Part shown: positions 10,183-26,919 of the stretch, piece after piece
Position numbering within the stretch: position 1 is the first letter of the stretch
How the letters are laid out: every line of letters starts with the position of its first letter
From: Rhodothermales bacterium
GTDB taxonomy: Bacteria; Bacteroidota; Rhodothermia; Rhodothermales; VXPQ01
Direction of reading: 5' to 3'
Length of the DNA: 43,667 nt
Assembly: GCA_022825385.1 (NCBI GenBank)
Contig: JAJDWX010000007.1
Span: forward strand, 1-43,667
Program-made: the position numbers and the translations under genes
Notes under the pieces: model-generated
The model's input: the letters and a program-made list of their open reading frames with translations, nothing else
What the model was told of the DNA's origin: nothing
Databases searched by the model: none

Positions 10183-13100
10183 ATGAAGGAGTCCATCGTG
10201 AAACGAGGCAAAAGAGACCAGCCCATAGCGATCATAGGCATGGCGTGCCGGTTTCCCAATGCGCCGAATATCTCTGCCTTCTGGCGCCTGCTCGAAGCCG
10301 GCGAGAACGCTGTGACGAAAGGTTCCCCGGGCTCTGGCGTCGGTCGCATAGGCACGCTCTTTCCGGATGCCGAGGTGCAAAACGACGCTTGCCGTTTCGG
10401 CGCTTTCGTCGAGGACATCGACCTGTTCGACGCCGCCTTCTTCCGCATTTCCCCCGTGGAAGCGCAACTTCTGGACCCGCAGCAACGTATGATGCTGGAG
10501 ACAAGTTGGCAGGCGTTCGAGGACGCGGGGATAGATCCGGATCGGCTAAGGGGTAGTCGCACCGGCGTGTACGCGGGAATCAGCAACAACGATTACCGGG
10601 GCGTAATCCTCGGAGGCAGCAGAACAGCCGATCCTTCCGCCAGCCTCTTCTCTGTCGCGGGCACCTCGCTGAATACAGCCATAGGTCGCGTGGCCTTCGC
10701 ATTGGGCCTGGGGGGACCGGCCATGGCGGTAGATACCGCCTGTTCGTCGTCGCTGGTTGCGATAAACCAGGCGGTTGCCGAATTGCAGCAGGGCAAAGCG
10801 GATCTGGCGCTGGCGGGCGGGGTGCAGGCGATCCTTTCCGGACGGCTGACCGAACTGCGGGGCAATGCCGGGATGTTGTCGCCAGACGGGCAATGCAAGG
10901 CGTTCGATGCGTCTGCGAACGGTTTCGTGCGAGGCGAAGGCTGCGGAATCGTGGTCCTCAAGCGGCTCGACGAGGCAGAGGCCGACGGCGACCATATCTG
11001 GGGCGTCATCCGAAGCGCCGCGGTAAACCAGGATGGCGCGAGTACAGGCTTGACGGTGCCAAACGGAGAGGCCCAGGAGCGGGTGATCGAAGAGGCGCTG
11101 TCGCGGGCGGGCATTCTGCCGTCGGAAGTCGATTACGTAGAGGCGCACGGGACGGGCACAGAGGTAGGCGACCCCATTGAGATCAACGCGACGGCAGCGG
11201 TGTATGGCAAGGGGCGCGCGGCGGACAACCCGATACTCGTCGGCTCGGTAAAAACAAATATCGGCCATCTGGAGCCCACCGCGGGGATTGCGGGCCTCGT
11301 CAAGACCGTGCTCTCGATGAAGCGGGGCGTGATCCCAAAACATCTGCACTTCGAGAATCCCAATCCGAACATGGATTGGGACCGGCTGCCTCTGCGCGTG
11401 ACTTCCGAGGCGACGGACTGGCCGCTGAGCGGCGAACGACCGCCGATTGCGGGCGTGAATTCGTTTGGATGGTCGGGCACGAACGCGCATGTCATCGTGG
11501 CGGGGTACGGATCGCCTGCAAGCAGCGACGAAGCGCTTTTCCCCATGGGACTGGCGGGACCCGCGCGGCCAGTCGCCATTTCTTTACCTGATTCCGTGCC
11601 GCCGCCGGAGGAAGAACTCGCCCCGCGCAGAACGCGGCTCCTGCCGCTATCGGCAAAATCCGACGAAGCGCTTCGAGACCTGGCGAGGCAGTACCTGAAA
11701 CGCGATGTTGCTTTCAAAGACGAAGCCCTGCTTGCCGACATGGCGTGGACAGCGGGCGTGGGACGCAGCCAGTTCTCTCGCCGCGCGGGTATCGTATTCG
11801 ATGGCGGCGCATCGCTGCGCGAGGGCCTGCATGCGCTCGCAGAGACCAGCGCGAGACCCGCGCCGCAAACGCCTTCCAGAATCGCATTTTTATATACCGG
11901 ACAGGGGAGCCAGTGGGTCGGCATGGGCGAGCATTTGTACCAGACCGAACCCGTGGCGCGGGCCGTCCTTAACCAATGCGACGCCGTGTTGCGGGAAGCG
12001 CGAGGCGCCTCGTTGCTCGATGCGATGTTCGGACGCGCCGGCGATTTATCGGACCAGGCGTGGACGCAACCAGCCATTTTCGCGATAGAATGCGCGCTGA
12101 CGGCGCTCTGGAAAAGCGTGGGGATTCAGCCCGACGTGGTGCTTGGACACAGCCTTGGAGAACTTGCGGCGGCGCAAGCGGCGGGCGTATTTAGCATAGA
12201 AGAAGGCGTGCGATTTGCCGCGGCGAGAGGCGAGTTGACCGCGACGCTGCCCGGCGGCGGGGCCATGGCGGCCATTTTCGCGGATGTGGCGCAAGTAGCC
12301 TCGGCCCTCGACGAACTGAACGCCGCCTCCACAGGGACGGGACTGAGCATCGCGGGATACAACGGGGCGCATCAGGTGGTGAGCGGCCCCGAAGACAAGG
12401 TAGAGGCCATCTCCGAGCGCTTCCTTGCGCAGGACATTCGGGTCAGCCGCTTGCGCGCCACGCATGCATTTCACAGCGCGTTGATAGAGCCGATGCTGGA
12501 CAAACTGGACGCCATCGTCTCAGAGATCGCGATCGCGCCCCCGTCGCTCCCCCTGGTGAGCAATGTGACGGGCCAGGCGCTGGAAACGGGCAAACTTCAG
12601 GATAGCGCGTATTGGCGGCGGCACACGCGAGAGCCCGTGGCGTTCGCGCGGGGCATCGAGACATTGGCCGGGATGGGCATCGATCTGGTCATTGAAGCGG
12701 GTCCGCACGCCGTGCTGAGTACCATGGCGACCCTGGCCTGGCCAGACACGGCAGCCGATCCTCCCGTTGCGCTGCCAAGCTTGCTGCGCCCCTCGTCCAA
12801 CGTATCGCAAGCAGAAGCCGACCGCGCATTTACGGCGGCGGTTGCAACGGCTTACGAAGCGGGCCTTTCCGTGTCCTTCGCCGGATTGTTCGCAGGAGAA
12901 AAGCGGCGCAAGGTCTCCCTGCCCGGCTATCCTTTCCAGCGCGAACGTTACTGGGTCGAAGCGCCGAAACGACGGAGACGGAGCGCGGGCCATCCCCTCC
13001 TGGGCGAGCGGCATGAATCCGCCAGCGGCGAGATTACGTTCGAGACAGAAGTGTTTCCCTCAGACCCGTCGTGGCTGAACGATCACCGGGTGTTCGGCTG

Positions 13101-16100
13101 CGTCATAGCGCCGGGCGCGTTCTATGGGGCCATGGCGATATCGGCGTCCGCCTCCGAGGGAAGCGAATCGATGGTCATCGAGGAAATGCAACTGCACAGC
13201 CCGCTGATCTTCCCGAAGGAGCGTACGGATAACGAGGAAGGCGCGGGCCGGGAAATGCAGGTTCTGCTCGCGGCTCCGGGGGAGGAGCCTTCGCGCCTTG
13301 TTCGAATATTCAGCAAAGGAGAGGGCGAGGAAGATTGGACGCTGCACGCGGAATGTCGCGCGCCATCGGACGCCGGCGCGAGGCAAGCCGCTGAGCAGGC
13401 GGATATGGAAAGCCTGAAGGCCGCGCTGTCGCCCGAGGACGTGCCGGCGTTTTACCGAGCCAAGGCGCGTGTCGGGATCGATCTCGGCCCCTCGTTTCGT
13501 ACGCTCAGGATGATCTGGTCGCGGGCGGGCGAGGCGTTGGGGGAGGTGTGTTTCCCCGAGGCGCCCGGCGGGAACGATCTCGACGTACACCCGCTTCTGC
13601 TCGACGCTTGCTTTCAGGCGATGGGCGCCGCGCGCAATCCGGGTGGCGCCGAAGACGCAGTCACCTATCTGCCGTTTGGCTGGGAGCGGCTATGGCTGCC
13701 GGACCGGCTGCCGGATCGGTTTTTCTGCCATGTGCGCATGCGGGAGGCTTCCAGGAACCGGGAGGCGGACGCCGAAACCGGCGGGTCGCCGGAGGTATTC
13801 GTGGGGGATTTCCTGCTCTATGACCAGCGCGGGAGCCTCGTCGGCGAACTGAGCGGATTCATGGTGAAGCGCGCGACGCGGGCGGCGCTGCTCTCGGCAG
13901 TGGAAGGGGTGCAGGAACTGCTCTACGAGGTCGCGTGGCGCGAAAGCCCTCTTGCGCAGGGCCTGCTGCCCGCGGATTTCCTCCCCAGTCCGGGAGCGGT
14001 TGCGGACCGCTGGGAGCTGTTCTCCGACTACCTCGCGGCGGAAGGCGTCGATGCCGGATTGCGGCCCGCCTGGTTGGCGGACCTCTCGTGCATGGCGCGG
14101 CATTTTGCGCTCTCGGCCCTGGAGAAACTCGGATGGGAGCGGAAGGCGGGCGACGCCGTGGACTCCGAAGGTTTGCGGCAGCGCCTGGGCGTCCTGGACG
14201 AACACAGCCGTCTGTTCCGCCGGATGCTCGAGCTATTGGCCCAATCAGGCGTTCTGGAGGCGGCGGGCGAAGATTTTGTCGTTGCCGCAGGGGCCGAAGA
14301 TCCCTTGCCAGAAGGAATTCCGGACAATCCCGAGGAGTTCGCGGCGCAAGTAATCGAGCGTTACGCGTATGCTTCAAGCGAGATCGGGATTTTTCGCAGA
14401 AGCGCGGGCGCCCTGGCGGAAGTGCTTCGCGGCGAAGAGGATCCGCTGTCGCTTCTCTTTGGCAGCGGAGAACCCAGCGCCGCGGATCTCTATTTCAAGG
14501 CGCCGATATATCGAGCGTCGAACCGGATGCTGGGAGACGCGGTGCGTACGCTTGTAGCCGGGTTGCCCGAAGGACGGCGCTTGCGGGTGATTGAGGTCGG
14601 GGCCGGTACCGGATCGGCGACCGAATCCGTCCTGCCGGAACTTCCCGAAGGGCGGTACGACTACATGTACACGGATATCTCGGCGGGCTTCTTCGCGCAG
14701 GCCGAGGCCTTGTTCGGGGATGAGTGTATCGAGTACCGGGTGCTGGATATAGAAAAAGACCCCGTAGAGCAGGGATTCGACGCCCACGGTTATGATTTGC
14801 TGATTGCGTCCAATGTGCTGCACGCCACGCGGTACCTGGAGGAAACGCTAACGCATTGCAGGAGCCTTCTCGCGCCGTCGGGACATCTCGTGGCGCTTGA
14901 GAACCTTTGCGGCCAGGATTGGCTGGATATGACGTTCGGACAATTGGACGGCTGGTGGCGGTTCTCTGACGACTGTCGCCCCCGCTACGCGCTGGCAGGG
15001 CCAGACGTATGGCGGCAGTCCCTCGGTAGCGTGGGTTTCGAAAGCGTAGAGATTCTGGGACTGGGCGGACCCGACGCTGCCGAGATGCCGGACAGGGGCG
15101 TGATTCTGGCCCAACAGCCCGAGGGGGTGGCCGAGCGGCGCGGCGTATGGGTTCTGGCGGCGGACCGCGGCGGCGGCGCGGCGTATGGGTTCTGGCGGCG
15201 GACCGCGGCGGCGGCGCTGGCCCTGGAGCTGGCGGCGCGCAACCAGACGGTTGTGCTGGCGAGCGATGCAGGCTCGACGGGAGAGGGGCCGGCGGAGAAA
15301 GAAACCGCTGTCATCCATACGTCTCTGGAGATGGCGCGCCGCGAATCGTGGCGGTCGCTGCTCGAAGGCCTGCCTGCAGACGCGCCGCTCAGCGGCGTCG
15401 TGCATTTCGCAGCGCTTGACGGCCACGGCTTCGATGCGACGACTGCCGAGATGGCGGAAGACGTAAAACGAGCAGGCGCGAGCGCATTGGCGCTGGCGCA
15501 GGGCCTCGTCGACGCCGATATGGCGCCCGAGAAGGGCTTGTGGTTTCTCACGCGGGGCGCGCAGGCGCTGGAGCGCGAACGCGCCGGAGAACTCGCCGGG
15601 GCGACGCTTTGGGGTTTCGGAAAGGTGCTGGCCCGGGAAGCGCCTCACCTGCAGCCCAGGATGATCGATCTGGACCCCGATCCTGCGGCGCCGCCGGCAG
15701 ACCTTGCCAACGAGCTGCTCTATCCCGATACGGAAGACCAAATCGTACGCCGCGGCAACCGCCGCCGCGTAGCCCGCCTTGTCCGGATCGGCGAGGGGGC
15801 GGACAGGATAAACTTGCCCGGAGAGCCGGGCTGGATGCTGGGGGTAGGAGAGGACGGCGCGGTCGCCGCCTTGCAGGCGCCGCGGACGGCGCTGGAATCG
15901 AAAGAAGTTCGCGTGGCTGTCGAGGCCGCCGGATTGAACTTCTGGGACGTGTTTGCGGCGCTTGGTTTGATTGACGAGAAATTTCTGGGCACGGAGTTTT
16001 GCGGCCATATCATTGAGGTCGGCTCCGAGGCGGCGAGCGTTGCGGTGGGGGATCGCGTCGTGGGATTGGCGTTCGGCGCCTTCGGGCCGGAGGTGGCGAC

Positions 16101-19100
16101 CCGGGCGGAACTCGTGGCGCCTGCGCCGACGGATTTGTCCGCCACGGCCCTTGCCTCCATGCCCACGGTCTTCGTGTCCGTCGCGCTATCTTACGAACTC
16201 GCGGAGCTGAAAGCCGGCGACCGGGCGCTGATTCACGCAGGCGCGGGCGGCGTGGGACTTGCGGCCATCCAGTGGGCGCAGGCAGCGGGCGCGGAAGTGT
16301 TCGCGACGGCGAGCGCGCCAAAACAGGCGTATCTCCGCTCGCTCGGCGTAAAGCATGTGTTCGACAGCCGTCAGACGAAATTCGGGAAAGAAATCCTTGA
16401 GGCCACCGATGGCGCAGGAGTCGATGTGGTACTCAACAGCCTCACGGCGGAGGGTTTCATCGACGCGAGTCTGGCGTGTCTGGCCAAGGGCGGCCGGTTC
16501 GTGGAACTGGCGGCGCGGGACATTCTGAGCAAGGAACAGATGGCGGCCGTACGGCCGGACGTGGCCTATTACATCGTGAATCTTCATGCCATGAAGGGGG
16601 ATGATCCGGCGCGGCCCGGCGCTTTGTTGCGGGACGTCATGAAACGGCTCGCAGCGGGAGAACTAACCCCGCTCATCCATTCCAGGTGGCCGTTTGCCGA
16701 AGCGAGACGGGCGATTGAGTTCATGCGCGATGGCAGGCACATCGGCAAAATCGCCTTTGCGAATTCGCCGCTCGCCAGCGGGCGGTTGCGAGCAGATCGA
16801 ACCTATCTGGTAACGGGCGGCCTGGGGGGAATCGGGTGCGTACTGGCCGACTATCTGGCGGATCGCGGGGCGGGCGCCATCGCGCTAAACGGGCGCCGGG
16901 CGCCAGACCCTGAAGCCGAAGAGACGATCCGCAGACTCCGCGCGCGCGGCGTGACAGTGCAGGTAGAGATTGCAGACGTTACGGACGCCGATGCAATAGA
17001 CGAGATGCTGGCGCGGATAGACGAGACGCTGCCGCCGCTGGGCGGCGTAATCCACAGCGTGGGGGTGTTGTCGGACGGCGCGCTCGGGAACCAGCGTTGG
17101 GAAAGATTCGAGCAGGTGCTGTGGCCGAAGGTGCTGGGCGCGTGGCATCTGCACCAGGCGACGGCGGACCGCGATCTGGATATGTTTATCCTTTTCTCCA
17201 GCGTCGCTGGCGTACTGGGCAATCCGGGACAGTCGAACCACGCGGCGGCCAATGCCTTTCTGGATCAACTCGCCATGCATCGCCGGGCGCTCGGGCTTCC
17301 GGGACAGACCATCGCATGGGGCGCGTGGTCAGAACTTGGCGAAGCGGAGGAACAAAGAGAACGGATTGCCGACCGGCTGGAAGCGCGCGGAACGGATTGG
17401 ATCACGCCGCAGCAAGGTCTCAGGGCATTCGATCAACTGGCGCGCGAGGACGCTGCGACGTCCGTCGTGCTGGCGGCCGACTGGTCCTCTTACGGGGAGA
17501 GCCTGGAATACCGCATGCCCCTGCTGGAGGATATGCTCTCTGCCATTTCAGAAAACGAGTCCGGGTCGCCTGCCCTGGCAGACGATTTGATGTCTCATCT
17601 GGCGGAAACGCCTGCCGCGGAACGCGAGGCCCTGCTGGTATCGTTCCTGCAACAGGAATTACAGGCCGTGCTGAGGTTGCCGACAGCGCCCGAGCCCACC
17701 GTGGGATTTTTCGATCTGGGGATGGACTCGCTCATGGCCGTAGCGTTGCGAAACCGGCTGAACCGCGCGCTTGCCGATGCGTACGCGGTACCCAACACGG
17801 TGGTATTTGACTACCCGGACATTGCCCGCCTCGCCAGCCATCTCCTTGAGGCGCTCGGCGAAGTCGGCGCGGCGCCCATGCCTCCGCCCCAAGCGCAACC
17901 CGAGCCAGAACCGCAACCGGCGGCGCAACGCGAAGACGACGGCATTGCCATCGTGGGCATGGCCTGCCGCTTCCCTGGCGCCCCGGATATTTCCGCCTTC
18001 TGGCGTCTGCTGGAGGCAGGCGCAAACGCAGTGACCGACGGACGCCAGGATTCCGGTTCATGGAACCATTCTGCCAACGGCCTTCCGCAAAAATACGCCC
18101 CCTATCGCCGGGGCGGATTCGTAGAAGGCATCGATCAATTCGACGCGGGATTCTTTCGAATTTCGCCGATCGAGGCGCGCATGATGGATCCGCGGCAGCG
18201 CATGATGCTGGAGACGACCTGGCTGGCGCTCGAGGACGCCGGCATGAATCCGGACGAATTGCGGGGTAGCCGCACCGGGCTATACGCTGGCGTCGCCACC
18301 AGCGAATACCGGGACCTGATGACAGCCAGCGACTACGGCGTCAATTATCTGAGCACTGCCGCGAGCATGACGGTCGGGCGCATCGCTTTCTTTCTTGGCC
18401 TGGAGGGACCGACGATGCCAGTGGAACTCAACTGCGCGTCGTCGCTGGTTGCGGTGCACCAGGCCGCGATGGGTTTGCGGCAGGGCGAAATCGATATGGC
18501 GCTGGTTGGAGGGACGCACGCAGCGCTGTCGCCGGAATTAACCCAAGAGATGGCGGACCTGGGGATATTGTCGCGGGAAGGGCGGTGCAAAACCTTTGAC
18601 GCCGATGCAGACGGATTCGTGCGAGGCGAGGGCTGCGGGATGGTCGTTCTCAAACGGCTAAGCGAGGCAGAAGCCGATGGCGACCGCATCTGGGGGGTGA
18701 TCCGCGGGTCGGCGGTCAACCAGAACGGGGCCAGCGCCGGGCCCACCGTGCCAAACGGGCCGGTGCAGGAGCAGTTGATTGAAGAAGCCCTGTCGCGGGC
18801 AGGCGTTGCCCCGTCAGAAGTGGATTATCTGGAAGCCCACGGAGGCGCGTCCGAATTCGGCGACCCCATCGAAGTGCAGGCAGCGGCGGCTGTTTATGGC
18901 AAAGGTCGCGAAGCAGATCGACCGCTTTTGATCGGCTCTGTGAAAACCAACATCGGTCACATAGAACCCGCCGCCGGCGTTGCGGCGCTGATCAAGGCCG
19001 TCCTGGCGATGAAGCGGGGCAAAATACCGAAACACCTGCATCTTGAAAACCCGAGTCGGCATATAGACTGGAGTCGACTCCCGGTACAAGTAGTTTCCGA

Positions 19101-20313
19101 AGGGACAGACTGGCCGCATCGTCCCGAACGTCCGCCGCGAGCGGGCGTCAGCGCCTTTGGCATATCGGGCGCGAACGCCCACGTCGTCGTGGAAGGATAT
19201 GGCAGCCCGGATGCAACGCCGGCGGGTTTGCCGCGCCCCGTTTCTGCGGCGGGCATGGATATTTCGGGCGAAGAACGAGCGTTCGCTCCGCGTCAGACGC
19301 GGCTCCTGCCCTTGTCGGGCAAATCCGACGAGGCGCTTCGCGAACTGGCGGGCCGCTATTTGTCGTGGCTCGACAAACTGGACGACGCCGAAGATCAGGA
19401 CCTGCTTGCCGATATGGCGTGGACGGCAGGCGCAGGGCGCAGCCATTTCGATCATCGGGCGGGTATCGCCTTCCAGGACGCCGCGTCTTTACGAAAAAAA
19501 CTACAGAACCTCGTAGAAACCGGGCAAAAACAAACGCTGCGGACGGGGACAAAGATTGGGTTTACCTGCGCTGGAGAGGGCGGCGAGTGGATTCGCGAGG
19601 GCAAGGCGCTGTACGAAAGCGAGCCGGCGGTCCGGGCCATTCTGGACCGTTGCGACCAGGTCATTCGGGAAGAAAGAAGCGCCTCCTTGCTGGACGCGAT
19701 GTTCGGCCAGACGGGCGATGCGTCCGATCTGGCGCAAGCCGCCGTCTATGCCATGGCGTCCGCGCTGGCCGCGCTGTGGTCAAGCGCCGGGATCCGGCCC
19801 GGCGTGGTCGTCGGGCGCGGCGCGGGCGAAATTGCCGCGGCGGCCGCGGCGAGCGTCTTTAGCCTGGAAGACGGGGTACGAATCGCAGCGGCGCGGGGGG
19901 CGAACAATCTGGAATCCGCCCTCGCAAACGTCGAGATCGCCTCGCCGTCCCTGATCCTGGTAAGCAGCATAACGGGCGGAATCGAAGTCCTTGACGCGGC
20001 GTACTGGCGGCGGCAAGCGCAAGAACCGGCGGCGCTCGCCGAATGCGGCAAGACGTTGGCCAACCTGAATGTTGACGCACTCCTCGAGATGGGTCCCGGC
20101 GCGGCGCCCGGCCTGATAAACCCGACAGACGACAACGCGAAGACGCTGGTTGTATTGCCAAGTCCGGGAAACAGCGGTTTTGCGGAATCGGCGGCCAGGG
20201 CGTACGAAGCGGGGCTTTCCGTTTCGTTCGGCGGGCTATTCGCGGGAGAAACGCGTCGCCGCATCTCGCTGCCGGGATATCCGTTCCAGCGCCAGTCCTA
20301 CTGGATTGCGTAG
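10183..20313 (+). CDS. type I polyketide synthase: KS-AT-DH-cMT-psiKR-ER-KR-ACP-KS-AT(inactive)
   Basis: A 3376-residue multidomain synthase. KS1 (13-442): C187 in DTACSSS, H322 in EAHGTGT, H362 in KTNIGHLE. AT1 (566-926): GHSLGE with S657, and HAFH (761-764), the malonyl-CoA type. DH (937-1236): H968 in DHRVFGCVIAP and D1141 in HPLLLDACFQ. C-methyltransferase (about 1240-1648): SAM loop VIEVGAGTGSA (1469-1479). A structural pseudo-KR follows (about 1650-1870). ER (about 1878-2194): GAGGVGL at 2020-2026. KR: TGGLGGIG from 2211, S2340, but H2353 where Tyr is usual. ACP1: DSL with S2516. KS2 (2585-3010): C2751 in ELNCASS, H2886 in EAHGGAS, H2926. AT2: GRGAGE, so Gly3213 replaces Ser, and about 90 residues are missing. 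The protein ends just after AT2, without ACP or thioesterase. A strong AAGGAG before GTG 10198 makes that an alternative start. The expected product is a reduced, methyl-branched chain. Confidence 0.95.
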   Translation: MKESIVKRGKRDQPIAIIGMACRFPNAPNISAFWRLLEAGENAVTKGSPGSGVGRIGTLFPDAEVQNDACRFGAFVEDIDLFDAAFFRISPVEAQLLDPQQRMMLETSWQAFEDAGIDPDRLRGSRTGVYAGISNNDYRGVILGGSRTADPSASLFSVAGTSLNTAIGRVAFALGLGGPAMAVDTACSSSLVAINQAVAELQQGKADLALAGGVQAILSGRLTELRGNAGMLSPDGQCKAFDASANGFVRGEGCGIVVLKRLDEAEADGDHIWGVIRSAAVNQDGASTGLTVPNGEAQERVIEEALSRAGILPSEVDYVEAHGTGTEVGDPIEINATAAVYGKGRAADNPILVGSVKTNIGHLEPTAGIAGLVKTVLSMKRGVIPKHLHFENPNPNMDWDRLPLRVTSEATDWPLSGERPPIAGVNSFGWSGTNAHVIVAGYGSPASSDEALFPMGLAGPARPVAISLPDSVPPPEEELAPRRTRLLPLSAKSDEALRDLARQYLKRDVAFKDEALLADMAWTAGVGRSQFSRRAGIVFDGGASLREGLHALAETSARPAPQTPSRIAFLYTGQGSQWVGMGEHLYQTEPVARAVLNQCDAVLREARGASLLDAMFGRAGDLSDQAWTQPAIFAIECALTALWKSVGIQPDVVLGHSLGELAAAQAAGVFSIEEGVRFAAARGELTATLPGGGAMAAIFADVAQVASALDELNAASTGTGLSIAGYNGAHQVVSGPEDKVEAISERFLAQDIRVSRLRATHAFHSALIEPMLDKLDAIVSEIAIAPPSLPLVSNVTGQALETGKLQDSAYWRRHTREPVAFARGIETLAGMGIDLVIEAGPHAVLSTMATLAWPDTAADPPVALPSLLRPSSNVSQAEADRAFTAAVATAYEAGLSVSFAGLFAGEKRRKVSLPGYPFQRERYWVEAPKRRRRSAGHPLLGERHESASGEITFETEVFPSDPSWLNDHRVFGCVIAPGAFYGAMAISASASEGSESMVIEEMQLHSPLIFPKERTDNEEGAGREMQVLLAAPGEEPSRLVRIFSKGEGEEDWTLHAECRAPSDAGARQAAEQADMESLKAALSPEDVPAFYRAKARVGIDLGPSFRTLRMIWSRAGEALGEVCFPEAPGGNDLDVHPLLLDACFQAMGAARNPGGAEDAVTYLPFGWERLWLPDRLPDRFFCHVRMREASRNREADAETGGSPEVFVGDFLLYDQRGSLVGELSGFMVKRATRAALLSAVEGVQELLYEVAWRESPLAQGLLPADFLPSPGAVADRWELFSDYLAAEGVDAGLRPAWLADLSCMARHFALSALEKLGWERKAGDAVDSEGLRQRLGVLDEHSRLFRRMLELLAQSGVLEAAGEDFVVAAGAEDPLPEGIPDNPEEFAAQVIERYAYASSEIGIFRRSAGALAEVLRGEEDPLSLLFGSGEPSAADLYFKAPIYRASNRMLGDAVRTLVAGLPEGRRLRVIEVGAGTGSATESVLPELPEGRYDYMYTDISAGFFAQAEALFGDECIEYRVLDIEKDPVEQGFDAHGYDLLIASNVLHATRYLEETLTHCRSLLAPSGHLVALENLCGQDWLDMTFGQLDGWWRFSDDCRPRYALAGPDVWRQSLGSVGFESVEILGLGGPDAAEMPDRGVILAQQPEGVAERRGVWVLAADRGGGAAYGFWRRTAAAALALELAARNQTVVLASDAGSTGEGPAEKETAVIHTSLEMARRESWRSLLEGLPADAPLSGVVHFAALDGHGFDATTAEMAEDVKRAGASALALAQGLVDADMAPEKGLWFLTRGAQALERERAGELAGATLWGFGKVLAREAPHLQPRMIDLDPDPAAPPADLANELLYPDTEDQIVRRGNRRRVARLVRIGEGADRINLPGEPGWMLGVGEDGAVAALQAPRTALESKEVRVAVEAAGLNFWDVFAALGLIDEKFLGTEFCGHIIEVGSEAASVAVGDRVVGLAFGAFGPEVATRAELVAPAPTDLSATALASMPTVFVSVALSYELAELKAGDRALIHAGAGGVGLAAIQWAQAAGAEVFATASAPKQAYLRSLGVKHVFDSRQTKFGKEILEATDGAGVDVVLNSLTAEGFIDASLACLAKGGRFVELAARDILSKEQMAAVRPDVAYYIVNLHAMKGDDPARPGALLRDVMKRLAAGELTPLIHSRWPFAEARRAIEFMRDGRHIGKIAFANSPLASGRLRADRTYLVTGGLGGIGCVLADYLADRGAGAIALNGRRAPDPEAEETIRRLRARGVTVQVEIADVTDADAIDEMLARIDETLPPLGGVIHSVGVLSDGALGNQRWERFEQVLWPKVLGAWHLHQATADRDLDMFILFSSVAGVLGNPGQSNHAAANAFLDQLAMHRRALGLPGQTIAWGAWSELGEAEEQRERIADRLEARGTDWITPQQGLRAFDQLAREDAATSVVLAADWSSYGESLEYRMPLLEDMLSAISENESGSPALADDLMSHLAETPAAEREALLVSFLQQELQAVLRLPTAPEPTVGFFDLGMDSLMAVALRNRLNRALADAYAVPNTVVFDYPDIARLASHLLEALGEVGAAPMPPPQAQPEPEPQPAAQREDDGIAIVGMACRFPGAPDISAFWRLLEAGANAVTDGRQDSGSWNHSANGLPQKYAPYRRGGFVEGIDQFDAGFFRISPIEARMMDPRQRMMLETTWLALEDAGMNPDELRGSRTGLYAGVATSEYRDLMTASDYGVNYLSTAASMTVGRIAFFLGLEGPTMPVELNCASSLVAVHQAAMGLRQGEIDMALVGGTHAALSPELTQEMADLGILSREGRCKTFDADADGFVRGEGCGMVVLKRLSEAEADGDRIWGVIRGSAVNQNGASAGPTVPNGPVQEQLIEEALSRAGVAPSEVDYLEAHGGASEFGDPIEVQAAAAVYGKGREADRPLLIGSVKTNIGHIEPAAGVAALIKAVLAMKRGKIPKHLHLENPSRHIDWSRLPVQVVSEGTDWPHRPERPPRAGVSAFGISGANAHVVVEGYGSPDATPAGLPRPVSAAGMDISGEERAFAPRQTRLLPLSGKSDEALRELAGRYLSWLDKLDDAEDQDLLADMAWTAGAGRSHFDHRAGIAFQDAASLRKKLQNLVETGQKQTLRTGTKIGFTCAGEGGEWIREGKALYESEPAVRAILDRCDQVIREERSASLLDAMFGQTGDASDLAQAAVYAMASALAALWSSAGIRPGVVVGRGAGEIAAAAAASVFSLEDGVRIAAARGANNLESALANVEIASPSLILVSSITGGIEVLDAAYWRRQAQEPAALAECGKTLANLNVDALLEMGPGAAPGLINPTDDNAKTLVVLPSPGNSGFAESAARAYEAGLSVSFGGLFAGETRRRISLPGYPFQRQSYWIA
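15135..15217 (+). repeat. 38-bp tandem duplication inside the PKS gene, read in two frames
   Basis: The sequence around CGGCGTATGGGTTCTGGCGG (from 15141) is repeated exactly 38 bases downstream, giving just over two copies. Because 38 is not a multiple of three, the first copy reads RGVWVLAADRGGG and the second AAYGFWRRTAAAA. It sits at the joint between the methyltransferase and the pseudo-KR region, where the first reading is the one expected. Confidence 0.85.
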
Positions 20314-20453: not shown

Positions 20454-20696
20454 ATGGCTTCAACCGAACAACGCATCAGAAACCTCATTGCAGAGAACCT
20501 GGCAATAGACGGGCAGCCGATCTCGCTGCCTGACGATTTGAACATCAGCCTTCAGAAAGCAGGCGTTTCCTCTGTGGACCTTGTCGCGTTCGCGAAAGTC
20601 GTTTCGCGGGAATTCGGCGTTGACTTTACTCCCGAAGATTGCGTCAATGTCGAAAGCGTACGAGAACTGGTCGAGCGGCTGGACGCCGACGGCTAA
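20454..20696 (+). CDS. free-standing acyl carrier protein
   Basis: An 80-residue carrier protein with the usual four-helix pattern. The attachment Ser is S40 in AGVSSVDLVAFAKVV; the residue before it is Ser instead of the usual Asp of the DSL motif. Helix III follows as NVESVRELVERL. It is too divergent to be the housekeeping fatty-acid ACP and lies 140 bases after the PKS, whose last module has no ACP of its own. It is therefore a plausible partner of the terminal KS2, or the acceptor of the finished chain. The PPTase at 22613-23401 would load it. It has its own promoter and is followed by a strong hairpin. Confidence 0.88.
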   Translation: MASTEQRIRNLIAENLAIDGQPISLPDDLNISLQKAGVSSVDLVAFAKVVSREFGVDFTPEDCVNVESVRELVERLDADG

Positions 20697-20824: not shown

Positions 20825-22555
20825 ATGGGCGCCAATAACCCCGGCGGTTCTTCCCGCGTCCGCTACCAGCCCGACGACAAGCTTTCGGCCACGCTTTCCC
20901 TTGGCCTTGGCTTCCAGATCGCCGTGCTCAGCATCGCTGGCGTCATACTGATTCCAACGGTGGTGATGCGCGCGGCGGGCGCGAGCGAAGCCTATGTGTC
21001 ATGGGCCGTTTTTACCGCTGTCGCGATCGGCGGCGCGGCCACCATGCTGCAAGCGGCCCGCGTCGGCCGCGTCGGCGCGGGATATATACTCGCCATGGGG
21101 CCGTCCGCCGCTTTTATTTCGGTCTGCATTACAGCAGTCGCCGAAGGCGGTCCGGGCATGCTTGCTCCCCTCGTCGTCATCACGGCGTTCGTCCCGCTTC
21201 TCTTGTCCTGGCGGCTTTCGCTATTCCAGCGACTTCTGACGCCTACCGTTGCGGGGACCGTCATCATGCTGATACCCATCACCGTGATGCCGGCCATCCT
21301 GAACTTGCTATCGGCCACGCCCCCCGACGCGCCTGCGCTGGCCGCGCCGCTAAGCGCGCTGGCGACGATACTTATTATCAGCGGCCTGGCGCTCAAGGGA
21401 ACCGGGGCCTGGCGCCTGTGGGCCCCCGTCGTCGGGGTCGTCGCCGGATCGATCCTTGGCGGCTTCTTCGGTCTGTACGACATACATCGCGTTGCTTCGG
21501 CTTCGTGGATCGGCCTGCCTGCAAACGCATGGCCTGGCCTCAATTTCGATTTCGGACCGACGTTCCGGGCGCTTCTCCCGGCATTTCTGCTCGTCGCCGT
21601 AATCAACGCCGTCCGAACGATCAGCAGCGCCGTGGCCATTCAGCGCATCTCGTGGCGCCAGGCCCGGGCAGTGGACTCCCGGGCGGTCCAGGGGGCGCTG
21701 GCCGTAGACGGCATAAGCACCCTCGTTTCCGGCCTCGCGGGAACCATGCCCAACACAGCCTATACGGTGGGCGTATCGGTTACCGACCTTACCGGCGTCG
21801 GCGCCCGCAGCGTGGGGGTCGCCGCCGGAGCGGCGTTCGTCGCCATGGCGTTTCTTCCGAAGGCGCTTGCCCTGATCCTGGCGATACCCGGTCCCGTCGT
21901 CGCTGCTTATCTCGCCGTACTCCTCGCGGCGCTCTTCATAGTTGGAATAAAGATCGTCGTGCAGGATGGAATCGATTATCGCAACGGCTTGATCGCCGGG
22001 GTTGCCTTCTTTACAGGGGTTGGCTTTCAGAGCGGCATGATATTTCCCGAATACGTTTCGGAGTTCGCAGGCGGTTTCCTGGAGAACGGGATGACGGCGG
22101 GCGGTTTCATCGCCATCCTGATGACGCTATTCGTGGAACTGACAGCGCCTCGCCGAAGCCGGCTCGAAATGTCGTTTGATTTTTCAGACTTGCCCAAAAT
22201 CACAGATTTTCTCCACGCATTTGCCTCCCGAAACGGTTTGGACGCGGCGATGGCAAACCGCCTGGACGCCGCCGCAGAGGAAACATTGCTTACGCTCATT
22301 CCGCAAGACGAAGCAGAACGCGCCCGCCGCCTGCGCCTTGTTGCGTACAAGGAAGAAGGCGACGCCGTACTCGAATTCGTTGTTTCCTCCGGAGAAGAAA
22401 ACCTTCAGGATCAGATTGCCCTGCTCAGCGAGCACGTAGACGAAACCCCTGTGGAGCGAGAAGTTTCTCTTCGGCTATTGCGACACCTTGCATCGTCCGT
22501 TCGCCACCAGCAATACCGCGAGACCGATATCGTAACCGTGCGCATGAAAACGTAG
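20825..22555 (+). CDS. NCS2-family transporter with C-terminal GHKL-like domain, copy A (altered substrate site)
   Basis: A 576-residue protein. Residues 20-440 are a nucleobase-cation symporter-2 (uracil/xanthine permease) core with about 12-14 membrane segments. The last 130 residues (from about 445) resemble the anti-sigma/histidine-kinase ATPase fold (LDAAAEETLLTL), without a clear complete ATP-binding set. It aligns without gaps to copy B at 23602-25338 through at least the first 280 residues. In the helix that holds the substrate-binding Glu of this family, copy B has ETVGD (264-268), whereas copy A reads RTISS, so a key acidic residue is lost. The TM10 motif PNT-x5-V-x2-DLTGVG is kept. 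ATG 20825 was chosen by alignment to copy B. Location beside the PKS genes suggests, but does not prove, a role in that locus. Confidence 0.85.
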   Translation: MGANNPGGSSRVRYQPDDKLSATLSLGLGFQIAVLSIAGVILIPTVVMRAAGASEAYVSWAVFTAVAIGGAATMLQAARVGRVGAGYILAMGPSAAFISVCITAVAEGGPGMLAPLVVITAFVPLLLSWRLSLFQRLLTPTVAGTVIMLIPITVMPAILNLLSATPPDAPALAAPLSALATILIISGLALKGTGAWRLWAPVVGVVAGSILGGFFGLYDIHRVASASWIGLPANAWPGLNFDFGPTFRALLPAFLLVAVINAVRTISSAVAIQRISWRQARAVDSRAVQGALAVDGISTLVSGLAGTMPNTAYTVGVSVTDLTGVGARSVGVAAGAAFVAMAFLPKALALILAIPGPVVAAYLAVLLAALFIVGIKIVVQDGIDYRNGLIAGVAFFTGVGFQSGMIFPEYVSEFAGGFLENGMTAGGFIAILMTLFVELTAPRRSRLEMSFDFSDLPKITDFLHAFASRNGLDAAMANRLDAAAEETLLTLIPQDEAERARRLRLVAYKEEGDAVLEFVVSSGEENLQDQIALLSEHVDETPVEREVSLRLLRHLASSVRHQQYRETDIVTVRMKT

Positions 22556-22566
22556 CGGCGGGAAAA

Positions 22567-22579
22567 CGGCGAGACGCCG
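22567..22579. terminator. small hairpin between convergent genes
   Basis: CGGCG-AGA-CGCCG lies in the 57-base gap between the stops of transporter copy A and the PPTase, which face each other. It could end both transcripts, but no T-run is present. Confidence 0.3.
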
Positions 22580-22612
22580 CCCTTCGCCCCCTTCTGCCGC
22601 GCCGGCCCAAAA

Positions 22613-23401
22613 TCAGGGTCTGGCGGCGCCATTCGGAGCCAGTTCATACGCCAGGGCCGCTGCGAAATGCTCGTTGCCCAGATTTTCGAGCCGCCATTCG
22701 ACGCCCGGCAGATGCGGAAATCTGAAGCGGCTCGCGCGCGCGCCGGAATACATGCCCGGCGGAATTTCGAACTGCGAAAGGTTCAGGGACAAGCCGGTCC
22801 CAAGCGCCTTGATCAAGGCTTCTTTCATAGTCCAGAGCGCAAAAAAGAGGCGGCGCTTCCGGTCTCCGCTGGCCGAAGCAAGCTGGGCGCGCTCCCCGGG
22901 AGCAAAGACCTTTCTTATCTCTCCGTCCGGGTCGTGGCGGGCGGTGCGTTCCTCCACGTCCACGCCAAGGCGGCCTTCCGGAGCCAAGGCAATCAATCCG
23001 TGTTTGCCGCTGTGACTGACACTGAAACTGATGGGCGCAGGCGCATCGTCGAGGAGCGCGAATAACTTGCCGTACCTGGACGCGCCGAAGGCAAGCTGGT
23101 CGTTTCTGCAACCGAACTGGCCGCAAAGCGCGGCGCGCAGCGCGGCGCGGCACAAGGCGAATTCCCTTCGGGGACGAGCGTGCCGGTAACGCTGTCGCCG
23201 CACCCGTTCCGCATTGTTCAGCCACGACAACGCCTCGGCCTCGCGCGCTCGATCCGGCGTCAGATCGACGTGCAGGATCACGATATCCCCTCGCTTGTCG
23301 AAAAATCGCCACCAGCGCTCGTCCATAGACGCCGCCGCGGTCATGCAGGCGGCGGGACGGGCGAACGAGGGGCGAGTACGGACTGTGGAAACGAGCGACA
23401 T
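22613..23401 (-). CDS. Sfp-type 4'-phosphopantetheinyl transferase
   Basis: A 262-residue enzyme that moves the phosphopantetheine arm of CoA to the Ser of carrier proteins. The family motifs are all visible: FSVSHSG (126-132) for CoA, GVDVEE (146-151) with Mg ligands D148 and E150, and WTMKEALIKALGTGL (190-204) with E194. The two-domain Sfp size fits. The first 25 residues are weakly conserved, and an in-frame ATG at residue 26 (position 23326) is an alternative start. It lies within the PKS locus, on the opposite strand between the two transporter copies, and is the natural activator of PKS ACP1 and the free ACP. Confidence 0.93.
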   Translation of the reverse strand: MSLVSTVRTRPSFARPAACMTAAASMDERWWRFFDKRGDIVILHVDLTPDRAREAEALSWLNNAERVRRQRYRHARPRREFALCRAALRAALCGQFGCRNDQLAFGASRYGKLFALLDDAPAPISFSVSHSGKHGLIALAPEGRLGVDVEERTARHDPDGEIRKVFAPGERAQLASASGDRKRRLFFALWTMKEALIKALGTGLSLNLSQFEIPPGMYSGARASRFRFPHLPGVEWRLENLGNEHFAAALAYELAPNGAARP

Positions 23402-23601
23402 AACGGTTTTCGCGTTCAGGGATACCCGCCAAGCCGGGCGATCCTGTCGAATATCCCAGGCAAAAATCCCTCCGAAGTTTTATCTTGCGATATATCCCCG
23501 ATTGACAGGCCCTTGCAGTCTGACAAGACCGCCACTGTTGCGACAAGATACGAAAAATCCGCCAGGCGCCGCTGCGCCCTGGCGTCACGATAAAATTCGA
23601 C

Positions 23602-25338
23602 ATGACCAACGACACGAACTCGTCTCCTGTCAACGTTCGCTACGAAGCGGACGAAAAACCGCCCTCTTCGCTCTCGTTCGGCCTCGGTTTCCAACTGGCT
23701 GCGCTATGCATATCCGGCATCGTGTTTACCCCGCTCATCGTGATTCGGGCTGCGGGCGGAACCGAAACCTACTTGTCCTGGGCCGTTTTCGCCGCCGTCA
23801 TGATCAGCGGGCTTGCGACGATCCTGCAAGCGGCGCGCGTCGGGCGGCTCGGGGCGGGATACGTGCTTCTGATGGGCACTTCCGGCGCCTTCATCGCGGT
23901 GTGCATCACGGCGCTCATGGAAGGCGGCCCGGCCATGCTCGCCACGCTGGTCATCATTTCGTCGCTTTTCCAGTTTGCGCTGGCGGCGCGACTTGCGCTC
24001 TTCCGCCGCATCCTGACCCCCGCCGTGACCGGCACGGTCATCATGCTGATCGCGGCCACCGTCATGCCCATCGTGTTCGATATGCTAAACGACGTGCCGG
24101 AGGGGTCTCCGCAACTTTCCGCGCCGGTAACCGCGCTCGTAACCATACTCGTCATTACCGGCATCGCCCTGAAGGCCAAGGGGGCCTTGCGGCTCTGGGC
24201 TCCGGTCATCGGGGTCGTCGCGGGTACGCTGGTCGGCGCATTCTACGGGCTGTACGACATGACGCGCGTGGGCGAGGCGGGCTGGTTCGGCCTGCCGGAC
24301 GGCGCCTGGCCGGGCATTGATTTTTCGTTTGGACCCGCTTTCTGGGGGCTGCTTCCGGCTTTCGTGTTCGTAACCCTCATCGGAGCCATCGAAACGGTGG
24401 GGGACGCCGTGGCCATTCAGCGCGTTTCCTGGCGGCGTCCCCGCGCGGTGGATTTCCGGGCCGTGCAGGGGGCGGTGGCGGCGGACGGGCTGGGCAACTT
24501 GCTGTCCGGCCTGGCGGGCACGGTCCCGAACACAACCTATTCGACGAGCGTGGCGGTCACCGAACTTACGGGCGTAGGCGCGCGCCGGGTCGGCATGGCC
24601 GCCGGGGCGTTTTTCGTTGTTCTTGCTTTTCTGCCCAAGGGGCTGGCGGCGTTTCTGGCCATACCCAGCCCGGTCGTCGCAGCGTATATCGCCATACTGC
24701 TGGCCATGCTTTTCGTGGTTGGCATGCGCATCGTCATTCAGGACGGGGTCGATTACCGCAAGGGGCTGGTGGTCGGCATTGCGTTCTGGGCGGGCGTCGG
24801 TTTCCAGAACGGGGTAATTTTCCCGGAATATTTCGCCGAATTCGCAGGCGGCATTTTCCAGAACGGCATGACGGCGGGCGGACTTACCGCGATCGTCCTG
24901 ACGCTGTTCATGGAACTCGCGGGACGGCGGGCGAGCCGCATGGAGGCCGCGTTCGACATATCCGTCCTGCCGGAAATTCGAGCGTTTCTGGTCGAATTTA
25001 CTTCCCGCAGCGGATGGAACCGGACCATGGGAGACCGGCTCGAAGCCGCCGCCGAAGAAACGTTGCTTACGCTCTTCGATCAGGACAAGGCAAAGGGCGA
25101 AGCGCGGCGGCTGCGCCTGACGGCCCGGAAGGAGGGCGACGAGGCGGTGCTGGAATTCGTCGCCTCCGCCGGGGAGGAGAATCTTCAGGATCAAATGGCG
25201 CTACTTGGGGAGCAAACCGCCGTGGAGCCGGTCGAGCAGGAAATTTCGCTCCGGCTATTGCGCCATGTCGCTTCCTCCGTCCGCCATCAGATGTATCATA
25301 ACACCGATATCGTGACGGTTCACGTAAAAGTCCGGTGA
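23602..25338 (+). CDS. NCS2-family transporter with C-terminal GHKL-like domain, copy B
   Basis: A 578-residue protein with the same plan as copy A: a membrane core (residues 20-440) and a soluble C-terminal domain (from about 445; LEAAAEETLLTLF, then a region ending HNTDIVTVHVKVR). This copy keeps the family substrate residues: IETVGD (263-268) with E264 and the TM10 stretch PNTTYSTSVAVTELTGVG. NCS2 proteins import uracil, xanthine or other purines with protons or sodium. The extra domain resembles RsbW-like anti-sigma ATPases and could regulate the transporter; this is inferred from pattern only. It starts 200 bases upstream of the PPTase start, divergently. ATG 23602 gives a short hydrophilic leader. 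Confidence 0.87.
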   Translation: MTNDTNSSPVNVRYEADEKPPSSLSFGLGFQLAALCISGIVFTPLIVIRAAGGTETYLSWAVFAAVMISGLATILQAARVGRLGAGYVLLMGTSGAFIAVCITALMEGGPAMLATLVIISSLFQFALAARLALFRRILTPAVTGTVIMLIAATVMPIVFDMLNDVPEGSPQLSAPVTALVTILVITGIALKAKGALRLWAPVIGVVAGTLVGAFYGLYDMTRVGEAGWFGLPDGAWPGIDFSFGPAFWGLLPAFVFVTLIGAIETVGDAVAIQRVSWRRPRAVDFRAVQGAVAADGLGNLLSGLAGTVPNTTYSTSVAVTELTGVGARRVGMAAGAFFVVLAFLPKGLAAFLAIPSPVVAAYIAILLAMLFVVGMRIVIQDGVDYRKGLVVGIAFWAGVGFQNGVIFPEYFAEFAGGIFQNGMTAGGLTAIVLTLFMELAGRRASRMEAAFDISVLPEIRAFLVEFTSRSGWNRTMGDRLEAAAEETLLTLFDQDKAKGEARRLRLTARKEGDEAVLEFVASAGEENLQDQMALLGEQTAVEPVEQEISLRLLRHVASSVRHQMYHNTDIVTVHVKVR

Positions 25339-25438: not shown

Positions 25439-26836
25439 TCAGTCTTCGTCGTCGTCCAGGTCGGGAATGACGACGAATTCCGGATACGCCTCGATCCCCA
25501 GTTCCGCCACGTCCTGTCCCAACTCCTCGACGTTCTTCGAGACGCGGACCCCCATGGTTTTGTCGATGGCCATCCAGACGAGCCAGGAGGCGGCGAACGC
25601 AAAAACGCCAACGGCCAGCACGCCAAGGAGCTGCACGCCAAAGTTGCCGCCCGCGGCAATGCAGACGGCCAGCGTGCCCCAGATGCCGGAAAACAGATGC
25701 ACCGGCACGGCGCCGACCACGTCGTCCACCCGGAGGCGCTCCAGAACCTTTAATCCGATGACGCACAGGGCGCCGCCCACCGCGCCGATGAACACGGCCC
25801 ATTGATGCGACACGATGTCGGGCCCGGCGGTGATCGCCACGAGACCCGCAAGCGCGCCGTTCAGGCTGGCGAGCAAATCCACGCGCCCCAAAAGCGGACG
25901 CGACAGGAAAATAGCGGCCACGAAACCCGCCGCGCCGGCAAGGTTGGTGTTCACAAGAATGTTGCTGATCGCTACGGCGTCCGCCGCGCCGCCGAGGGCC
26001 AGCTGCGAACCGCCGTTAAAGCCGAACCAGCCAAGCCACAGGATGAACACGCCCAGCGTCACCGCGGGCACATTCGACGGCGGCGTGATCTTGACGTCCC
26101 CGTTTTTTCGGAATTTGCCCTTGCGCGCGCCGACGATGAGCACCCCGGCCAGCGCCGCCCAGCCGCCCGTCGAATGCACGATGGTGGATCCTGCGAAATC
26201 CTGAAAGCCCATGGCGGCCAGCCATCCCCCGCCCCAGGTCCAGGCCCCGACGATCGGGTAGATCACCATGGTCAGGATGGCGATGAACACGAAAAAGGAC
26301 CATAATTTGACGCGCTCGGCCAGCGCGCCGGATACGATGGAGGCGGTGGTCCCCACGAACACCATCTGAAAGAACCAGTTCGACATGATCGAATGGCCAT
26401 TGTCAATCACGTCGGCGGCGGCTTCGCGCTCGCCGCCCAGCAGCGCGACTTCGTCCGCAGAGGTTCCGTAGAACAGTTTGAGGGACCCGAACCAGCCGCC
26501 CGGCTCCACGCCGACATACATGATATTGTAGCCGATCAGGTAAAACGTCAGCCCGGCGATCGAATAGAGGCCCACATTCTTCAGGCAAATCACCGAGGCG
26601 TTTTTCGTACGCACGGACCCGGCCTCCAGCATTGTGAAGCCGGCGCACATCCACATCACCAGGGCGCCCCAGACCAGAAAGGAGAACGTGTTCAGCACGA
26701 ACCGGGCCTCGTCGCCCATCATGCTTTGGCCTTGCGCAGCGGGTACGGCGACAAGGAACAGGGCCGCGAGACCGCACAAGCCGACGGCGGCGCGGCGCAG
26801 GGTTTTACGAGAAATACCGGATAAATTGCTTTGCAT
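25439..26836 (-). CDS. amt: ammonium transporter Amt with signal peptide
   Basis: A 465-residue Amt-family channel for ammonium uptake. A cleavable signal peptide is likely (hydrophobic 17-33, then AAQGQS at 33-38), followed by 11 membrane segments. The twin pore histidines are H221 in VHSTGGWAAL and H380 in VPVHLFSGIWG; the outer gate residues lie in NWFFQMVFVGTTASIVSGALAER. The acidic cytoplasmic tail (NVEELGQDVAELGIEAYP...DLDDDED) is where a PII protein would bind, but no glnB/glnK is nearby. ATG 26836 was chosen because it starts the signal peptide and has a G-rich ribosome site just upstream; an in-frame start at 26902 would add a 22-residue leader. Confidence 0.95.
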   Translation of the reverse strand: MQSNLSGISRKTLRRAAVGLCGLAALFLVAVPAAQGQSMMGDEARFVLNTFSFLVWGALVMWMCAGFTMLEAGSVRTKNASVICLKNVGLYSIAGLTFYLIGYNIMYVGVEPGGWFGSLKLFYGTSADEVALLGGEREAAADVIDNGHSIMSNWFFQMVFVGTTASIVSGALAERVKLWSFFVFIAILTMVIYPIVGAWTWGGGWLAAMGFQDFAGSTIVHSTGGWAALAGVLIVGARKGKFRKNGDVKITPPSNVPAVTLGVFILWLGWFGFNGGSQLALGGAADAVAISNILVNTNLAGAAGFVAAIFLSRPLLGRVDLLASLNGALAGLVAITAGPDIVSHQWAVFIGAVGGALCVIGLKVLERLRVDDVVGAVPVHLFSGIWGTLAVCIAAGGNFGVQLLGVLAVGVFAFAASWLVWMAIDKTMGVRVSKNVEELGQDVAELGIEAYPEFVVIPDLDDDED

Positions 26837-26919
26837 GGAGGTCCCCCGGTTCGATCTGGAAAGTTTCACAGGGCTACGGCAGGCCAATTCCTCAAGAAGC
26901 AAAGGGAAAAACTGACCAC

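What the first reader, a model, noticed from the sequence alone, without database searches (positions are those of the whole stretch)
20825..25338. Two NCS2 transporters fused to an anti-sigma/GHKL-like domain, one with its substrate Glu replaced by Arg
Both copies carry about 130 soluble residues after the membrane core, with an EETLLTL helix like the N-box region of RsbW-type ATPases. Alignment of the cores needs no gaps over at least the first 280 residues. Copy B has ETVGD at 264-268, copy A RTISS, at the place where the family binds the nucleobase. Copy A, the one next to the ACP, may have a new substrate, perhaps linked to the polyketide, or act as a sensor.
Basis: partly seen in the sequence, partly recalled or inferred. 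Interest (0 to 1): 0.6.

Follow-up and report, generated by a model that had tools for sequence, protein, structure and literature searches.

The report
Sponge-symbiont permeases fused to RsbW-like domain
Two neighbouring membrane transporters in this probable sponge-symbiont genome each carry a built-in, ATP-site-less copy of a bacterial regulatory (anti-sigma) domain, and one belongs to a branch that has swapped its key substrate-binding acid for arginine and usually sits beside polyketide-making genes, which hints at a transporter re-tooled to serve a symbiont lipid pathway.

Summary
Genes A (20825-22555) and B (23602-25338) are NCS2-fold permeases, 62% identical. Each has a ~135-residue C-terminal domain whose AlphaFold model matches RsbW (Z 15.2), UsfX and SpoIIAB; HATPase_c_2 hits 32 of 75 relatives. 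The ATP-site motifs are lost (N-box Asn to Thr, G1 and G2 gone), but another residue set is nearly invariant (E485, E486, N527, D530, S549, R551, H555, H562, Y565).

The Glu-to-Arg change is not a fluke. Arg264 marks a clade with essentially one origin, spanning about seven phyla. Of 27 dereplicated Arg copies, 18 lie within 3 kb of a type I PKS, against 0 of 85 Glu/Asp copies. Three Lys copies on other branches are PKS-linked too. Gene order is shuffled, so the linkage looks selected. Copy A is probably the SupE permease of sponge sup-PKS clusters (sequence not available to test).

Best reading: a transporter whose pseudo-anti-sigma domain docks a STAS-type partner, and in copy A a pocket re-tooled for an anion of the PKS pathway. 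Fold, motif loss, Arg clade and linkage are shown; substrate, partner and direction of transport are inferred.

The parts
20825..22555 (+). Copy A: NCS2-fold permease with C-terminal RsbW-like domain; Arg264 (PKS-linked) type; probable SupE
   Evidence: PF00860 1e-34; Arg clade; adjacent to PKS and ACP
21614..21628 (+). RTISS, residues 264-268 of copy A; Arg in place of the substrate Glu (UraA Glu241)
22145..22552 (+). C-terminal RsbW-like domain of copy A (residues 441-576), EETLLTL at 22277-22297
   Evidence: HATPase_c_2 E 0.024 alone; family evidence; fold of the orthologous domain
23602..25338 (+). Copy B: NCS2-fold permease with C-terminal RsbW-like domain; Glu264/Asp268 type
   Evidence: PF00860 7e-48; AlphaFold model matches UapA and UraA
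24391..24405 (+). ETVGD, residues 264-268 of copy B; Glu aligned with UraA Glu241, Asp with His245
24922..25335 (+). C-terminal RsbW-like domain of copy B (residues 441-578), EETLLTL at 25054-25074
   Evidence: separate AlphaFold model, RsbW Z 15.2, UsfX 14.5, SpoIIAB 13.2
10183..20313 (+). Type I PKS beside copy A: KS-AT-DH-MT-ER-KR-ACP-KS-AT
   Evidence: Pfam
20454..20696 (+). Free-standing ACP between the PKS and copy A, same strand
   Evidence: PF00550 2.8e-10
22613..23401 (-). 4'-phosphopantetheinyl transferase between copies A and B, opposite strand
   Evidence: PF01648 1.1e-18

Best explanation
Shown: both proteins are NCS2-fold permeases with a C-terminal RsbW/SpoIIAB-fold domain that has lost the ATP motifs but keeps a near-invariant polar set of its own. 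Shown: copy A belongs to an Arg264 clade that is kept next to type I PKS genes across about seven phyla, with further changes concentrated in the substrate half-helices. Inferred: the C-terminal domain is a pseudo-anti-sigma domain that docks a protein partner, most likely a free STAS protein whose phosphorylation is set by ordinary RsbW and SpoIIE enzymes, and so gates transport. That would be the mirror image of SulP/SLC26 permeases, which carry the STAS half. Inferred: copy B moves a small molecule that need not be a classical nucleobase, and copy A uses Arg264 and a more hydrophobic TM10 pocket to bind an anion, most simply an acyl carboxylate made by, or fed to, the adjacent sup-type PKS.
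For: Fold. Loss of ATP motifs with a new invariant set. Purifying selection on the domain. Core fold. Arg clade. Arg copies 18/27 within 3 kb of a PKS versus 0/85 Glu/Asp copies; shuffled gene order; all 21 PKS-linked copies carry Arg or Lys at 264. Substrate-site changes 258, 262, 264, 267, 268, 298, 312, 316. STAS, RsbW and SpoIIE genes beside some relatives; anti-anti-sigma ORFs beside a SupE-like permease in a sponge PKS fosmid: PMC3908369.
Against: No substrate, binding partner or activity was tested. The window itself has no STAS gene next to A or B that I found. Partner-switch genes lie within 3 kb in only 9 of 145 dereplicated copies, clustered in a few lineages. The Arg-PKS association has one main origin, so the Fisher p value overstates it. 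9 of 27 Arg copies have no PKS within 3 kb, two of them with a neighbouring ACP gene. Residues 526-551 of the domain are modelled with low confidence.
Confidence: 0.4

Rival explanations
1. Transceptor: the core of copy A no longer transports but senses a ligand (the polyketide or a host metabolite), and the C-terminal domain holds or releases a sigma factor or STAS protein and so controls gene expression.
For: Copy A lost both the Glu264 and Asp268 equivalents of the UraA substrate and proton-coupling pair. The C-terminal domain is nearest to anti-sigma factors in fold.
Against: The rest of the permease core is strongly conserved and TM9 Asp295 is kept in all Arg copies. The same C-terminal domain sits on the Glu types, which keep the coupling pair.
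Confidence: 0.2
2. Nucleobase-type transporter after all: both copies move purines, pyrimidines or related rings (copy A perhaps an anionic one such as urate), and linkage to the PKS reflects co-transfer on islands rather than a shared pathway.
For: Fold and family are NCS2. Nine of 27 Arg copies have no PKS within 3 kb. The Arg-PKS link has one main origin.
Against: TM10 NAT signature lost in both copies. Linkage survives changes of gene order and strand. PKS-linked Lys copies lie on other branches.
Confidence: 0.2
3. The C-terminal domain is an intramolecular or oligomer-forming element (NCS2 proteins are dimers) that regulates the core without any STAS or sigma partner, possibly through a small ligand bound by the invariant N527/R551/H555/H562 set.
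For: A dense invariant polar set different from the ATP site. RsbW and SpoIIAB themselves form dimers (established knowledge). Partner-switch genes lie near only a minority of copies.
Against: Recurrent partner-switch neighbours in unrelated contexts: Nitrospirales, Defluviicoccus, Thiodictyon.
Confidence: 0.15
4. Decay: the C-terminal domain is a non-functional remnant and the Arg is drift in a redundant duplicate.
For: ATP motifs are gone. A few Arg-type copies are broken (L130, L132).
Against: dN/dS is lower in the C-terminal domain than in the core for both copies. E486, N527 and L553 are invariant in 75 sequences. Arg is conserved across phyla.
Confidence: 0.05

Closest known systems
SupE permease of sponge sup-PKS clusters (ABE03914, Aplysina aerophoba symbiont clone pAPKS18) and ORF17 of the Plakortis simplex swf fosmid pPS11G3
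   Same: A permease of similar length (ORF17, 557 aa) next to a sponge-symbiont type I PKS; anti-anti-sigma ORFs beside ORF17 (PMC3908369)
NCS2/NAT nucleobase permeases UraA, UapA, XanQ/PbuX
   Same: Fold (UapA TM 0.79-0.80 normalised by target) and, in copy B, Glu and Asp of the TM8 ExxGD motif
   Different: C-terminal RsbW-like domain; TM10 signature lost; copy A has Arg and Ser in place of the TM8 Glu and Asp; far below curated cut-offs
RsbW / SpoIIAB / UsfX anti-sigma kinases
   Same: Fold and topology (Z 13-15); the Glu of the N-box is kept (E486)
   Different: N-box Asn, G1 and G2 motifs lost; fused to a permease; a different invariant residue set
SulP/SLC26 permeases with a C-terminal STAS domain
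   Same: Related membrane fold and a C-terminal soluble domain taken from the same partner-switch system
   Different: The soluble domain is the anti-sigma half, not the STAS half
'Solute carrier family 23' proteins of Ca. Thiodictyon syntrophicum (WP_157818058, WP_157818059) and Azospirillum thermophilum (WP_109333777)
   Same: NCS2 core with a C-terminal extension of similar length outside sponges; the Thiodictyon pair lies near a RiPP precursor, STAS and SpoIIE genes
   Different: About 25-26% identical; kinship of the extension only weakly supported; Asp at the Glu position

Membership tests
NCS2/NAT permease (PF00860) | Match to the family profile and fold | tested here: met
   PF00860 1e-34 and 7e-48, cut-off passed; full model of B matches UapA, UraA and SVCT1
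NCS2/NAT permease (PF00860) | Acidic substrate residue in TM8 (UraA Glu241) | tested here: inconclusive
   Met in copy B (Glu264), not met in copy A (Arg264)
NCS2/NAT permease (PF00860) | TM10 NAT signature [QEP]NxGxxxxT[RKG] (from established knowledge) | tested here: not met
   TSVAVTELTG in B and VGVSVTDLTG in A
NCS2/NAT permease (PF00860) | Curated xanthine permease / NCS2 model cut-offs | tested here: not met
   pbuX 171 and 201 bits against 414; ncs2 145 and 176 against 292
NCS2/NAT permease (PF00860) | Nucleobase transport | not testable with these tools
   Needs uptake assays
RsbW/SpoIIAB anti-sigma kinase | GHKL fold of the RsbW type | tested here: met
   Z 15.2 to RsbW over 113 residues at 2.2 A, next family well below; HATPase_c_2 in 32 of 75 members
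RsbW/SpoIIAB anti-sigma kinase | ATP site: N-box Asn, G1 DxGxG, G2 GxG | tested here: not met
   Position 490 is Thr in 51 of 75, Ile, Ser or Ala in most others; G1 and G2 glycine motifs absent
RsbW/SpoIIAB anti-sigma kinase | Binding of a STAS protein or sigma factor; kinase activity | not testable with these tools
   Only gene neighbourhood is available
SulP/SLC26 with STAS | C-terminal STAS domain | tested here: not met
   The C-terminal domain is RsbW-like, not STAS
SupE of the sup-PKS cluster | Permease gene next to a sponge-type PKS | tested here: met
   Window, and 18 of 27 dereplicated Arg copies; PKS domains KS-AT-DH-MT-ER-KR-ACP-KS-AT
SupE of the sup-PKS cluster | Sequence orthology to ABE03914 | not testable with these tools
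   Sequence not held; the paper on the sup cluster is not in the library

The most novel reading that the evidence does not exclude
A mirror image of the SulP-STAS permeases: a transporter family, expanded to several copies per genome in sponge symbionts, carries the anti-sigma (RsbW-like, ATP-dead) half of the partner switch and is gated by free STAS proteins; its substrate site has been re-tooled into Glu, Arg, Lys and Gln types, and the basic types handle acyl products of symbiont PKS clusters.
Probability: 0.25. Interest if true: 0.8.

Novelty: new variant of a known kind. Interest (0 to 1): 0.58.

Why it matters
sup-type PKS genes are widespread in high-microbial-abundance sponges and their products and transport are unknown. 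This gives their permease a concrete architecture, one testable residue (264) and a testable regulator type (STAS). If right, partner-switch signalling would act directly on a transporter that serves symbiont lipid or polyketide chemistry. It also suggests that annotating these genes as xanthine/uracil permeases or 'solute carrier family 23' is misleading.

Tried and rejected
Sequence-profile search of the PDB with the C-terminal domain found nothing credible; the fold search did. Recurrent neighbours found by clustering were mostly lineage synteny (malate synthase, RNA polymerase, MOSC, YchF), not a shared pathway. Independent-pairs testing of Arg against PKS linkage had only 3 pairs, so phylogenetically independent support could not be shown. 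Kinship of the Thiodictyon and Azospirillum C-terminal extensions was inconclusive (hhalign probability 2%, E 0.025). Literature searches found no paper describing an NCS2 permease with an RsbW/GHKL domain, but the library lacks most subscription papers. The decayed-tail reading was disfavoured by dN/dS. A first survey of ordinary PF00860 proteins aligned only 3 and was redone with 28 others.
Full report
Observation. The two ORFs lie as described: copy A at 20825-22555 (576 aa) and copy B at 23602-25338 (578 aa), with a PPTase on the other strand between them and a PKS and free-standing ACP upstream of A. Both match PF00860 and are its only members in this genome. RTISS and ETVGD fall at the same residue numbers, 264-268. 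Alignment to the solved uracil permease puts B-E264 on UraA Glu241 and B-D268 on His245. In UraA these residues coordinate uracil and are proposed for proton coupling (PMC5539350).

C-terminal domain. A single-sequence Pfam hit is weak (HATPase_c_2 E 0.024 in A), but the family evidence is strong. Of 75 diverse relatives, 32 hit HATPase_c_2 on their own, the best at 2.6e-6. A profile comparison with canonical RsbW-like proteins from the fetched loci gives 96% and E 4e-9. A separate AlphaFold model of residues 441-578 (mean pLDDT 80) matches RsbW (Z 15.2), UsfX (14.5), Rv1364c (14.4) and SpoIIAB (13.2), well above the histidine-kinase rows at 7-8. The ATP machinery is gone: the N-box Asn position is mostly Thr, and the G1 and G2 glycine motifs are replaced by stretches such as ENLQD and SLRLLRH. 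Yet E485, E486, N527, D530, S549, R551, H555, S559, H562 and Y565 are nearly invariant. Selection is purifying and stronger on this domain than on the core (dN/dS 0.12 in A and 0.05 in B; the counts behind this are small). So it is a conserved pseudo-anti-sigma domain, not a decayed tail. Residues 526-551 are modelled with low confidence.

Membrane core. The full model of B matches UapA, UraA and SVCT1 first and SLC26 proteins next. Both copies fall far below the xanthine-permease and NCS2 curated cut-offs, and both lack the TM10 NAT signature. Hence even copy B need not be a nucleobase permease.

The family. Relatives were found in MAGs of many phyla, and 50 of those genomes have mostly 2-9 matches each (the count includes fragments and some ordinary NCS2 proteins). 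Records named MPN.. come from the sponge Aplysina aerophoba and those named 277c from Petrosia ficiformis. Most other labels look like sponge MAGs to me, but that is recall, not a test. In 198 genomes drawn from the window's phylum the long form appears only in the window's genome and one relative. In 274 genomes of one gammaproteobacterial draw only three, the centre included, have a close match. More distant proteins with a similar-length extension occur in free-living Thiodictyon and Azospirillum, so the architecture may not be sponge-exclusive.

Arg264. Among 145 dereplicated copies with usable flanks, 85 carry Glu or Asp with Asp268, 27 Arg, 18 Lys and 12 Gln. The Arg type is essentially one clade (27 rows, SH-aLRT 91) on a tree built without the trait columns. 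It holds members from Rhodothermales, Gemmatimonadota, Latescibacterota, Alpha- and Gammaproteobacteria, Nitrospirales, Nitrospinota and Binatia MAGs. The 28 ordinary PF00860 proteins sampled, all from the window's phylum, have Glu or Asp here, one Lys, and no Arg. Positions that separate Glu from Arg types gather in the substrate half-helices (256-268, 298, 312, 316).

PKS linkage. Of the 27 Arg copies, 18 lie within 3 kb of a type I PKS, against 0 of 85 Glu/Asp copies. Fisher p is 1.7e-14, but the copies are not independent: only 3 independent pairs exist on the tree. Three things still argue for a functional tie. Gene order and orientation are reshuffled (16 same strand, half with the PKS upstream and half downstream; 5 opposite strand). 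The neighbouring KS domains are as little as 51% identical. And three Lys-type copies on other branches are PKS-linked too, so all 21 PKS-linked copies have a basic residue at 264. The literature names a permease SupE in the sup cluster of A. aerophoba symbionts and reports a SupE-like ORF, with anti-anti-sigma ORFs beside it, close to SwfA (PMC3908369). Sup enzymes are proposed to make mid-chain-branched fatty acids (PMC4245539). Copy A is probably SupE, but I could not obtain that sequence.

Partner switch. Gln-type copies of three Nitrospirales MAGs are flanked by canonical RsbW, STAS and response-regulator/SpoIIE genes (domains checked). Glu types of four loci, three of them named Nitrospinota or Nitrospinae, have a response-regulator/SpoIIE gene and an RsbW gene downstream. 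L064 has two STAS genes. The Thiodictyon pair lies near a RiPP precursor, STAS and SpoIIE. Overall the linkage within 3 kb is 9 of 145 copies, so it is suggestive only. The window's genome has its own SpoIIE-STAS-RsbW sets on other contigs.

Mechanism. I commit to a transporter gated through a docking pseudo-anti-sigma domain, the mirror image of SulP-STAS, with the pocket of copy A re-tooled for an anion such as an acyl carboxylate of the PKS pathway. Fold, motif loss, conservation, Arg clade and PKS linkage are shown. Docking partner, direction and substrate are inferred.

Novelty. The permease fold, the RsbW fold and a PKS-linked permease are each known. The fusion with a lost ATP site and the Arg/Lys re-tooling were not found in the papers I could search, which are open-licence papers only. 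I file it as a new variant of a known kind.

Noticed in passing
window 25439-26902 (minus); also L033, L034, L064, L230, L244: An ammonium transporter (Amt) gene lies about 100 bp from copy B and recurs within about 5 kb of family members in unrelated lineages, in L064, L230 and L244 together with STAS or RsbW genes.
   Followed up: partly
L258 (Thiodictyon plasmid pTs417) 3725-13701: Two NCS2 proteins with C-terminal extensions stand back to back near an NHLP RiPP precursor, ABC transporter genes, a STAS protein and a SpoIIE phosphatase: a second natural-product context for this architecture.
   Followed up: partly
L203, L206, L211 (Nitrospirales MAGs): The Gln type (QTISA) of the permease lies next to a complete partner-switch set: RsbW on the opposite strand, then STAS and a response-regulator/SpoIIE phosphatase.
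   Followed up: partly
L130 (G004:C1:1408432-1409797) and L132 (G085:C59:785-2441): Arg-type copies split over several frames, probably pseudogenes or assembly errors; no PKS was found beside them.
   Followed up: no
L099 and L108 (5713-9679), L089, L095, L098, L118: Family members often occur as tandem pairs; the gammaproteobacterial pairs in L099 and L108 are both Lys types (KSIGV and KSIGT).
   Followed up: no
window 10183-20313: The PKS ends in a second module with KS and AT only, completed by a separate ACP gene; it is longer than the monomodular sup enzymes described in the literature.
   Followed up: no
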